Origin: a virus | Strand: one strand, 5' to 3' | Length of the DNA: 31,728 bases | IMG/VR virus record: IMGVR_UViG_3300030102_002564 | Location: 1 to 31,728 of that record | In this document: positions 2,612-15,713 of the stretch, in pieces | How positions within the stretch are numbered: the first letter of the stretch is position 1 | Layout: each line of letters begins with the position of its first letter | The notes under the pieces: generated by a model | Told to the model about the DNA's origin: nothing | The model's input: only the letters and a program-made list of their open reading frames with translations | Database searches by the model: none | Made by a program: the position numbers and the translations under genes

Positions 2612-2822
2612 ATTAAATAGTATTAAAGCTGAGTTGGATGGTGATACCATTCAGTATGATAATGGAGAGAGTATCTGGTTGGTTACTTATTTAGCTCAGT
2701 ATGATTGGGATAATCCAGCTCCTAATAGTACTGAAGATGCTTTTAAGATAGGTAAGGTGGTTAGGGAGTATGGTATTACCACAGAGGAAATAGAAGAAGA
2801 ACGAAGGTTAATGAATGGATAA
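2601..2822 (+). CDS. Small hypothetical protein (73 aa)
   Basis: Not recognised. Second gene of the promoter copy 1 unit, starting inside the end of the 37-residue gene and overlapping the next gene by eight bases. The protein is acidic, with a beta-like start (YRLNSIKAELDGDTIQYDNGE) and a helical C-terminus (TTEEIEEERRLMNG). No motif is visible. The start depends on re-initiation after the overlapping upstream gene, since no separate binding site is clear. Confidence 0.6.
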   Translation: MVYRLNSIKAELDGDTIQYDNGESIWLVTYLAQYDWDNPAPNSTEDAFKIGKVVREYGITTEEIEEERRLMNG

Positions 2823-3339
2823 ATGTTCATTATGTGAATGTGATTTACCTAAAGAACGTGTTCATCTAGGTTACAAAGAATGTTTAGAATGTAGTAATAC
2901 CGAGAAGTATGCTTCTCATGTTGTGTATCCACACAAGACTGGTGGTTACATTCAACCTATGTCATCTGAACAAGCTAATGATATGAAACGACTTGACCGC
3001 CGTAGTGTTGGCGGTGAACGTAAAGCCAAAGGTATCGTAGCTGACAAATCGTGGGATAGGTGGTTAGAAAATTATTACAACCCTAAACCACCAAAGAAAA
3101 AATTTATACCAAAAGCACCACAGATTACTTTTATGAATTTTGATGATGCTTATGTAAAGGTTATTAATGAATATGAATCTAGAGGTTATGACGCGGCTAG
3201 AGATTACACACAAAACTTATACTCAAATGATAAAATTAGTTTGATGAACAAATCTAAGATTATCAATGAGCTTACAGAGTTACAGTTCATGTCAGTAGAC
3301 CAAAGAAAGTTTTTGAAAAAACTTGTAAAAAAAGCTTGA
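2815..3339 (+). CDS. Zinc-ribbon-like protein (174 aa)
   Basis: No named family recognised. The N-terminus carries two CxxC knuckles, CSLC at residues 4-7 and CLEC at 23-26, the spacing of a small zinc ribbon. Residues 45-80 are basic, with PMSSEQANDMKRLDRRSVGGERKAKG cut by short loops. The C-terminal half (about 105-174) is helical and ends in a strongly basic KKLVKKA, suggesting nucleic-acid binding. It is the third gene of the promoter copy 1 unit. Its stop codon TGA (3337-3339) lies inside the TTGACT -35 box of promoter copy 2, so gene end and promoter are fused. The fold assignment rests only on the cysteine pattern. Confidence 0.7.
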   Translation: MDKCSLCECDLPKERVHLGYKECLECSNTEKYASHVVYPHKTGGYIQPMSSEQANDMKRLDRRSVGGERKAKGIVADKSWDRWLENYYNPKPPKKKFIPKAPQITFMNFDDAYVKVINEYESRGYDAARDYTQNLYSNDKISLMNKSKIINELTELQFMSVDQRKFLKKLVKKA

Positions 3340-3365
3340 CTCGTATACGCTTTTCGCCGTACCTT
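3336..3365 (+). promoter_or_regulatory. Repeated early-type promoter, copy 2, driving the structured RNA
   Basis: -35 TTGACT (3336-3341), 18-base spacer, -10 TACCTT (3360-3365), again preceded by AAAAAAAGC. Transcription would begin at about 3371. No ribosome binding site or convincing gene follows for more than 600 bases, so this promoter appears to serve the non-coding region. Confidence 0.8.
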
Positions 3366-3370
3366 TAGGT

Positions 3371-3948
3371 GTTGATTTGGGTGGTTAGATTTTGTTTTTG
3401 ATTTTTGAAAAATTGTGTTGGCCTGATGTTCGAAAGAGGAGTAGACTTCAGGTGGTGTGAGAACCTTAAAATGTTAGTCTCAGGACAACTCGGAGTAGAA
3501 GTCAATCGGCCGATAAGATTTCGAAACAGACCAACCAAAGATTTTGTTTTTTCTCATTACTAGTGGTTATATCAGTATCGATTTTATACTGTCACGATTA
3601 AAAGAATCCCACGTTTCTTACACCGGTGGTGGTTTTACTTCTTATTTCCCACCACCAAAATATGCGAGTGTCTTTGGTGGTGATACACTCTCCAAAAAGA
3701 AAACCACCAAAAATTTAAAAGTTGAGCTGAGTAGCCAAAAAACGACCCGATTAAATACGATGTAGACGATGGGTGGTGACAAACGGTTTAAAGCCCGATG
3801 GACAGACAACTTCGGTGGGTGAAGAAGGCGACATCAATAAGACCTCTTCCCCACCTCATGATTTTATATGTGGTGTTGAAACGATGATGAACTGGCGGGC
3901 GATAATATCAAACAATACGGATTCTGGCTCCTCACCACAAATATTTTA
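3371..3948 (+). ncRNA. Large structured non-coding RNA, class not identified
   Basis: About 580 bases lie between promoter copies 2 and 3 without a credible gene; the only longer frame (3544-3765) has no binding site. The base composition is less AT-skewed than its surroundings, and the segment is full of complementary segments. A long-range helix 3376-3386 with 3529-3539 (10 of 11 paired) closes a 5' domain. Inside it are 3418-3427 with 3505-3513, GACTTC 3444-3449 with GAAGTC 3498-3503, and TGAGA 3458-3462 with TCTCA 3478-3482. Then come hairpins 3573-3578/3586-3591, 3625-3632/3649-3656 (8 bp) and 3666-3671/3685-3690; the loop of the last pairs as a pseudoknot with 3703-3711. Further hairpins are 3814-3828/3843-3855 (13 bp, two bulges) and GTGGTG 3870-3875 with CACCAC 3933-3938 near the 3' end. 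Large ornate phage RNAs such as GOLLD and ROOL have similar size, but I cannot claim a match. Ends are approximate. Confidence 0.8.
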
Positions 3949-3957
3949 AAAAAAAGC

Positions 3958-3987
3958 TTGACTTGTATTAGTTTTTATTGTTACATT
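3958..3987 (+). promoter_or_regulatory. Repeated early-type promoter, copy 3
   Basis: -35 TTGACT (3958-3963), 18-base spacer, -10 TACATT (3982-3987), preceded by an A-tract and GC. It lies immediately after the 3' end of the structured RNA and 27 bases before the ATG at 4014. It rules out the ATG at 3978 as the start of the next gene, because that codon would lie upstream of the transcript start. Confidence 0.82.
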
Positions 3988-4013
3988 TAGATGTAATAAA
4001 AAAGGAAAAAAAT

Positions 4014-4391
4014 ATGAATAAAGAAAATAAAATAAAATATGTAGAAGCCCTCGGTAATCTCATGGGTGGTATTAAAGAAAACTACAAAAATTGGGGTGGT
4101 GATATTGACTCACTATCTGATTCACAAAAAGAAATTAGACTTAGGATGATTGATGAGTTCAACAAAAACTTGGATATCAGAAGTGGTAGGAAGTTTGATA
4201 AGGTTGTGTCCAATGGTTCCGTTTGGGGTTTTGTTGCTAAAACAAATGGTGTATTAAAAGGTATTCCGTATTTCGTTGGTGATGTATTCAAACCAGCCGG
4301 TTGGAGTGCTCCAGCAAAACATGTTAGAGGTTCTATATTTTCTTCGAAATCAAATTGGTATAGTTGGACTGGTCCTAACTATCTTATATAA
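4014..4391 (+). CDS. Hypothetical protein (125 aa)
   Basis: Not recognised. The start at 4014 is chosen over an in-frame ATG at 3978 because the latter is inside the promoter, while 4014 has AAAGGA in the right place. The N-terminal half is helical and charged (NKENKIKYVEALGNLMGGIKE). The C-terminal half is richer in Gly, Trp and aromatic residues, with SNGSVWGFVAKTNG and KSNWYSWTGPNYLI, suggesting a compact beta domain. The next gene begins on the last base of its stop. Early expression is expected from promoter copy 3. Confidence 0.7.
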   Translation: MNKENKIKYVEALGNLMGGIKENYKNWGGDIDSLSDSQKEIRLRMIDEFNKNLDIRSGRKFDKVVSNGSVWGFVAKTNGVLKGIPYFVGDVFKPAGWSAPAKHVRGSIFSSKSNWYSWTGPNYLI

Positions 4392-8479: not shown

Positions 8480-8894
8480 GGGGCTGTAATGGAAATCGAC
8501 AGGTGTTATTTGACAATAGAGTGCAGCAGAGATTGAGTATGTCTCGTTACAAAAGACTCACAATTCTATATGGCGAACAATCGCTAGAAGGGTTGGACAT
8601 CGATTGGCATTTAGCTGAGTATGATTACTCAGTTGAATTACCGATTGGTGATTCTCAACCATCTTACGCATACGCTGCATAAGATACTGAGTTGTCTAAC
8701 ACTCGGTCATAAAAAAAGTTAGACACCATCTCTTTAGTTAGGATAGAAGTTAGAGATTAAAGAAACTACCAGTTGACAACTCTGAGCAAAGTTGTAAGTA
8801 GTTTGTCAGTTACTTCTTATTGAAACTGAACTAAGCTGTGAATGACTCATTGAAGAAAACAGGCTGGACGCGGGTTCGACTCCCGCCAGCTCCA
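8480..8894 (+). ncRNA. ssrA: tmRNA (one-piece), phage-encoded
   Basis: Rescues stalled ribosomes by adding a degradation tag. The acceptor stem pairs GGGGCTG (8480-8486) with CAGCTCC (8887-8893); the T-arm is GCGGG-TTCGACT-CCCGC (8870-8886); the 5' end has the typical GGAAATCGACAGG. Pseudoknot 1 is explicit: GAGAT 8529-8533 with GTCTC 8541-8545, and loop TGAGT 8534-8538 with ACTCA 8556-8560. Downstream are an 8-bp helix (8693-8700/8718-8725), a pseudoknot (8728-8733/8752-8757 with 8735-8739/8764-8768), and helices 8763-8769/8798-8804 and 8806-8811/8824-8829. The resume codon expected 11 bases after pseudoknot 1 is GGC at 8572, giving a 36-residue tag that starts GEQSLEGLDI and ends PSYAYAA at TAA 8680-8682. 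CCA is not encoded (ACG follows). A T-run at 8900-8907 may end the transcript. Confidence 0.93.
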
Positions 8895-8928
8895 CGAAAT
8901 TTTTTTTGTAATTTAAAGAGTAAAGGAT

Positions 8929-15491: not shown

Positions 15492-15713
15492 CTACTTACG
15501 AAATAAACCCACCAACACCAATAAGGCGACAAGTCCAGCGAAACCCGACTCGCCGAACTTATTAATGATGGATGTGAGGTTACCAATAACATTGACACCA
15601 AAGATACCAGTTCCGAATATTACTTCAGAAACTGCACCTACGGCTACAAAGGAAACCAATAAATGAACAATGTCATCTATATATCCCTTTACCATTGTTA
15701 TTATTTCCTGCAT
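15492..15713 (-). CDS. Small two-helix membrane protein, holin candidate
   Basis: The only convincing minus-strand gene. The 73 residues contain two hydrophobic segments, about 13-34 (DDIVHLLVSFVAVGAVSEVIFG) cut near the start by Asp, and about 55-71 (SGFAGLVALLVLVGLF), with a basic end RK. Size and layout fit class II holins, which punch holes in the inner membrane to release cell-wall enzymes, but pinholins and unrelated small membrane proteins look the same. GGGAG lies six bases before the ATG. A TATAAATA late promoter match lies about 87 bases upstream on the minus strand, and a terminator-like hairpin lies between them. Confidence 0.68.
   Translation of the reverse strand: MQEIITMVKGYIDDIVHLLVSFVAVGAVSEVIFGTGIFGVNVIGNLTSIINKFGESGFAGLVALLVLVGLFRK

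What the first reader, a model, noticed from the sequence alone, without database searches (positions are those of the whole stretch)
3371..3948. A ~580-base structured RNA with its own promoter, of no class I recognise
Seen: a clean promoter at 3336-3365, no credible gene, and many complementary segments. These include a long-range 5' closing helix (3376-3386/3529-3539), nested helices inside it, an 8-bp hairpin (3625-3656), a 13-bp hairpin (3814-3855) and a closing-type helix near the 3' end (3870-3875/3933-3938). Known: phages carry large ornate RNAs (GOLLD, ROOL) of similar size whose roles are still being worked out. Inference: this is a member of one of these or a new class, expressed early. 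It is the best candidate in the window for an undescribed system.
Basis: partly seen in the sequence, partly recalled or inferred. Interest (0 to 1): 0.88.

Follow-up and report, generated by a model that had tools for sequence, protein, structure and literature searches.

The report
Mosaic structured RNA array of phages
Next to its early genes this uncultured virus of bacteria carries a 580-base stretch that makes no protein but a chain of folded RNA units, and the same units recur alone or in other orders in other phages, so this looks like an undescribed, mix-and-match class of viral RNA.

Summary
The structured RNA is real and belongs to no class I could find, but it is probably not one 580-nt "ornate" molecule. 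Window 3371-3948 lies between two copies of the phage's own promoter and has no credible gene. Energy alone does not support structure (z = -0.5), but comparative evidence does. Relatives in other phage contigs match only parts of it. Module A (3417-3535) has 15 of 24 pairs with compensatory changes among five sequences. Module D (3719-3855) has 11 of 29. In both, 0 of 500 shuffles reached this. Blind covariance-model searches of whole viral records found further members of both modules (E 1e-24 to 1e-36). Module A stands alone between two promoters in one phage. Elsewhere it follows other modules, and D follows a tRNA-T-arm-like module (B) that the window lacks. At least ten modules recur in about 18 arrays in many orders, with AAAGAWTT at many joints. 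Two close relatives of this phage lack the locus. No Rfam family (GOLLD, ROOL, OLE and others) and no GenBank phage matched. Best reading: a promoter-driven, mosaic array of autonomous structured RNAs, probably for host takeover or counter-defence. The architecture is well supported; the function is inferred.

The parts
3335..3365 (+). phage-type promoter of the RNA unit (TTGACT - 18 nt - TACCTT)
   Evidence: own motif 5 observed against 0.05 expected in the window
3371..3416 (+). 5' leader; transcript start near 3371 inferred from the promoter
   Evidence: inference; no relatives found for this stretch
3417..3535 (+). module A: closing helix 3417-3421/3531-3535, P2 3422-3429/3445-3452, P3 3454-3456/3463-3465, P4 3477-3479/3484-3486, P6 3498-3502/3518-3522 with a palindromic loop AUCGGCCGAU
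   Evidence: 5 relatives, 15 of 24 pairs compensated, 0/500 shuffles; blind CM hits
3537..3544 (+). AAAGATTT joint sequence, recurrent between modules
   Evidence: 17 against 1.5 expected over 17 arrays
3625..3656 (+). 8-bp hairpin GGUGGUGG/CCACCACC; similar hairpin after module A in L111
   Evidence: sequence shows it; weak alignment to L111; unproven
3664..3712 (+). module C: probable H-type pseudoknot, 3666-3671/3685-3690 and 3673-3681/3703-3711
   Evidence: 44 of 46 bases identical to L093:5718-5763; pairing read from sequence, too conserved to test
3719..3812 (+). module D1: outer helix 3719-3724/3807-3812 and inner helices, core AGCCAAAAAACGACCCGAU..GAUGGGU..AAGCCCGAUGGACA
   Evidence: relatives L202, L219, L110, L259
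3814..3855 (+). module D2: bulged hairpin (10 pairs counted) with a conserved CAAUAAGA loop
   Evidence: 5 of 10 counted pairs compensated; occurs without D1 in L260
3870..3938 (+). 3' element closed by GUGGUG/CACCAC (3870-3875/3933-3938)
   Evidence: sequence only; no relatives
3957..3987 (+). next phage-type promoter, serving gene 4014-4391 and bounding the RNA unit

Best explanation
3371-3948 is an accessory, promoter-driven transcription unit whose product is a tandem array of independently folding structured RNA modules (A, an unassigned hairpin segment, C, D1, D2, a 3' element). It is one of a family of mosaic RNAs in a group of mostly marine phages, in which the same modules recur alone or in other orders. 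Shown: homology of the modules, covariation, autonomy of A, variable order, bounding promoters, absence from close relatives. Inferred: each module does its own job as a small structured RNA, either inside the array or after cutting at the AU-rich joints (AAAG/AUUU fits an RNase E-type site). Module A probably dimerises through its palindromic loop. The array serves early host takeover or counter-defence, which would explain its rapid gain, loss and reshuffling.
For: Module A: 15 of 24 pairs with changes on both sides in five sequences, 97.5% of cells paired, 0/500 shuffles. Module D: 11 of 29, 96.6%. Blind CM searches found L253, L273 and L259 at E 1e-24 to 1e-36. Module orders differ between arrays. 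L253 holds A alone between two promoters. Joint motif 17 against 1.5 expected. Palindromic loop in all five A sequences in three different forms. Close relatives L004 and L089 lack the unit.
Against: No transcript data. Only four to five sequences per window module. Segments 3371-3416, 3545-3662 and 3869-3948 have no clear relatives. A whole-transcript scaffold with variable parts is not excluded. Cutting at the joints, dimerisation and the takeover role are untested; in the window and L253 the palindrome could also form a small hairpin within one molecule.
Confidence: 0.6

Rival explanations
1. One large scaffold RNA that works like GOLLD or ROOL: the whole 580-nt transcript folds as a unit and self-assembles, and modules are exchangeable peripheral domains.
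For: Similar length, phage setting, palindromic loop that could give oligomers; predicted pairing of the 5' and 3' ends in the minimum-energy fold. GOLLD also has a variable 5' region (PMC12286853).
Against: Module A is complete on its own in L253; B appears without other known modules in L240; ends are not conserved; no Rfam match; whole fold no better than shuffles.
Confidence: 0.22
2. A 5' leader or cis-regulatory element of the downstream gene 4014-4391, comparable to manA or wcaG motifs of cyanophages.
For: Lies directly upstream of that gene; marine phages are known to carry leader RNAs (PMC2864571).
Against: The gene has its own promoter at 3957 after the RNA. Several arrays (L219, L240, L247, L253, L260) are followed at once by a new promoter. 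In L093 and L095 the array lies after the same gene family, not before it.
Confidence: 0.06
3. A decayed or unusual protein gene, or a DNA-level element such as an origin, packaging or recombination site.
For: Frame 3544-3765 has a short stretch of gene-like codon score. The repeated promoter sequences could serve recombination.
Against: No conserved frame or family match. Conservation follows base pairs with G-U wobble. The unit is on the promoter's strand.
Confidence: 0.03

Closest known systems
[quoted passage not shown]
   Same: Large structured phage RNA of unknown function, hundreds of nt; one part more conserved than another (PMC12286853)
   Different: No match to the Rfam model up to E = 10; no tRNA gene in the window; modules of ours occur alone and in other orders
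ROOL RNA (Rumen-Originating, Ornate, Large)
   Same: Similar length; phage-encoded; possible self-association through loops
   Different: No model match; no tRNA island; mosaic modules instead of one fixed architecture
manA and wcaG RNA motifs
   Same: Structured RNAs of marine phages; manA occurs in some of the same contigs (L095, L109, L031, L058)
   Different: Described as leader elements of metabolic genes (PMC2864571); ours has its own transcription unit and no model match
tRNA / tmRNA tRNA-like domain (module B only, not in the window)
   Same: 6-bp acceptor-like stem stacked directly on a 6-bp T-arm with a canonical T-loop (UUCGANY), 12 bp as in tRNA
   Different: No anticodon arm and no CCA end at a transcript terminus; about 100 nt of other structure inserted; Rfam tmRNA sees only the T-arm (12-13 bits)

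Membership tests
GOLLD (Rfam) | match to the covariance model | tested here: not met
   cmscan of 3300-4020 at E up to 10: no GOLLD hit; relatives also none
GOLLD (Rfam) | encoded near or within tRNA genes (often, not always) | tested here: not met
   no tRNA in the window, only a tmRNA 4.5 kb away
GOLLD (Rfam) | assembles into a closed RNA cage | not testable with these tools
   needs purified RNA and cryo-EM
ROOL (Rfam) | match to the covariance model | tested here: not met
OLE, HEARO, group I/II introns, RNase P, 6S, tmRNA (Rfam) | match to the covariance model | tested here: not met
   E up to 10, no such hit in 3300-4020
manA / wcaG | match to the covariance model | tested here: not met
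mosaic module family described here | module A or D with conserved, covarying structure | tested here: met
mosaic module family described here | own phage-type promoter directly upstream | tested here: met
mosaic module family described here | expressed as RNA and processed at joints | not testable with these tools
   needs RNA-seq or Northern blots

The most novel reading that the evidence does not exclude
Phages carry interchangeable arrays of small structured RNA effectors, an RNA counterpart of anti-defence gene islands. Each module is a decoy, inhibitor or assembly unit against host machinery (one mimics a tRNA T-arm/acceptor stack, one dimerises through a palindromic loop). The arrays evolve by cassette shuffling at promoter and AU-linker sequences.
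Probability: 0.35. Interest if true: 0.93.

Novelty: categorically new. Interest (0 to 1): 0.84.

Why it matters
Few large phage RNAs are known, their functions are open, and those described have one fixed architecture each. A family built by shuffling independent, covariation-supported RNA domains behind phage promoters would be a new way for phages to evolve RNA function. Because module A occurs as a stand-alone RNA of about 150 nt, function can be tested module by module, which is harder with the large GOLLD and ROOL RNAs.

Tried and rejected
Direct blastn of the RNA against GenBank phages and of relatives L110, L093, L219, L190: only chance or promoter-like hits. First probe CGAAAGAGGAGTAGAC in viral contigs: three chance hits. 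Relatives fetched through the deformylase gene held no copy inside the fetched stretches; copies turned up later elsewhere on some of those contigs. A module D probe in GTDB genomes gave two chance hits. Weak A-like matches L254/L255 (19 bits) were fetched with the very motif they share, so I left them out of the covariation counts; L277 (17 bits) was also left out. Flavobacterium phage immuto, Microcystis phage Mel-JY01 and a 484-kb uncultured phage, the nearest named relatives by baseplate protein, hold none of modules A, B or D. I considered a CsrA-type sponge (GGA motifs not visibly enriched on inspection) and a Shine-Dalgarno-like loop in module A (not kept in L273) and dropped both. Global minimum-energy folding was uninformative.

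Full report
WHAT IS THERE. The window is 31.7 kb of a 33.2-kb uncultured virus record with tail and baseplate genes and a tmRNA. Its nearest named relatives by baseplate protein are Microcystis phage Mel-JY01 (45% identity) and Flavobacterium phage immuto (41%). Between gene 2815-3339 and gene 4014-4391 lie about 640 bases without a credible frame: the longest are 52-73 aa, codon scores are mostly below gene level, and no protein family matches. The stretch is bounded by two copies of a phage-specific promoter at 3335 and 3957; the motif occurs five times on the + strand of the window against 0.05 expected. Two close relatives with the same neighbouring genes, L004 (about 75% DNA identity around the site) and L089 (89% identity in the downstream protein), have no such RNA at this place, so the unit is accessory.

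IS IT STRUCTURED. Folding energy gives no support (z -0.51; tmRNA control -4.96). No Rfam family matches credibly even at E = 10 (the four listed hits are eukaryotic, archaeal or chance matches far below their gathering scores). The case rests on comparison. Loci fetched through the neighbouring gene held partial relatives. Three pattern scans of viral contigs and blind covariance-model searches of about 145 whole viral records plus three named phage records added more. Module A (3417-3535) has relatives in L111, L190, L253 and L273; the last two were found blind at E 4e-36 and 1.5e-24. Module D (3719-3855) has relatives in L202, L219, L110 and L259, the last found blind at E 1.7e-28. On MAFFT alignments not fitted to a structure, A pairs in 97.5% of cells with 15 of 24 pairs compensated on both sides, and D in 96.6% with 11 of 29; no shuffle of 500 reached the paired percentage, the number of compensated pairs or the covariation score. 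The structures were partly derived from these alignments, so sliding controls matter too; they drop to 36-59% and 39-50%. Helix P6 of module A has a different sequence in each of the five members (GAAGU/AUUUC, CCCUU/GAGGG, UCCUU/GAGGA, AAAAA/UUUUU, UGUCU/AGACA) and pairs in all.

WHAT KIND OF THING. The relatives do not align end to end. They share modules in different combinations: window A-C-D1-D2; L202 and L219 B-D1-D2; L110 and L259 E-X-B-D1-D2; L190 and L273 F-A; L093 B-C; L095 B-G; L106 K-B-G; L247 K-B-E; L109 K-G; L122 and L155 E-E; L260 has D2 without D1; L240 and L244 show B alone of the modules profiled; L253 is module A alone between two promoters. Modules are often joined by AAAGAWTT: 17 occurrences against 1.5 expected, maximum 6 in 100 simulations; the window has one at 3537-3544. 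Module B, absent here, ends in a tRNA-like T-arm stacked on an acceptor-like stem, with 9 of 17 pairs compensated. Module E is a compact junction with 8 of 20 pairs compensated. Module C reads as an H-type pseudoknot, but with two near-identical copies it cannot be tested.

HOW IT MAY WORK. I favour an array of autonomous structured RNAs made from one promoter. Shown: modules, structure, autonomy of A, order changes, promoter boundaries, presence/absence. Inferred: separate function of each module; cutting at the AU joints, which fit the RNase E consensus as I know it; dimerisation of module A. The apical loop of P6 is palindromic in all five A sequences, in three different forms (10, 6 and 8 nt). 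The chance per shuffled loop is 0.004, 0.11 and 0.04, and the self-duplexes are calculated to be as stable as, or more stable than, the HIV-1 DIS Mal loop. Mosaic, accessory units with their own promoters among small variable early-type genes look like host-takeover or counter-defence loci, but nothing here tests that. The main rival is a single GOLLD- or ROOL-like scaffold; against it are lone modules, non-conserved ends and no covarying helix known between modules.

KNOWN OR NOT. GOLLD and ROOL are the closest in size and setting; both lie often near tRNA genes, and their functions are poorly understood (PMC12286853). The window RNA fails their model tests and their tRNA setting. manA and wcaG are marine phage RNAs but described as leader elements (PMC2864571); manA occurs separately in some of the same contigs. 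Five literature searches found no description of such modules; the library holds open-access papers only. I rate the class categorically new, with the caveat that 'phage structured RNA of unknown function' is itself a known heading.

The 5' closing helix at 3376-3386/3529-3539 should be replaced by 3417-3421/3531-3535. The 13-bp hairpin is right. The 3' helix is untestable. The '580-nt RNA' is better described as an array.

LIMITS. Few sequences per module, no expression data, host unknown; segments 3371-3416, 3545-3662 and 3869-3948 lack clear relatives.

Noticed in passing
window 8480-8895 (+): Phage-encoded tmRNA with tag peptide EYDYSVELPIGDSQPSYAYAA; tmRNA genes are common in the related contigs.
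   Followed up: partly
L059:10118-10211 and L085:10310-10403: Related phage contigs carry a selenocysteine tRNA (anticodon TCA) by both Rfam and ARAGORN, unusual for a phage.
   Followed up: partly
L095:7028-7221, L109:4496-4696, L031:4850-5047, L058:2176-2373: manA RNA motif inside long ORF-free gaps of related contigs, in two cases a few kb from a mosaic array; manA might be one more exchangeable module.
   Followed up: no
L106:5811-6700 and L109:1490-2000: Longer arrays (600 nt and more) with unprofiled conserved segments after module G, e.g. CTCAAGAGAGTTCTGGACCCGTTAGG.
   Followed up: no
L110:7741-7880 and L104:7493-7646: A further conserved non-coding segment upstream of the array (CGCGCTGT..GCTTGGATTG..), 67% identical between two contigs.
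   Followed up: no
window 15492-15713 (-): A 73-aa membrane-protein-like (holin-like) gene on the minus strand of an otherwise plus-strand genome; similar minus-strand sequence lies beside tRNAs in L025 and L046.
   Followed up: no
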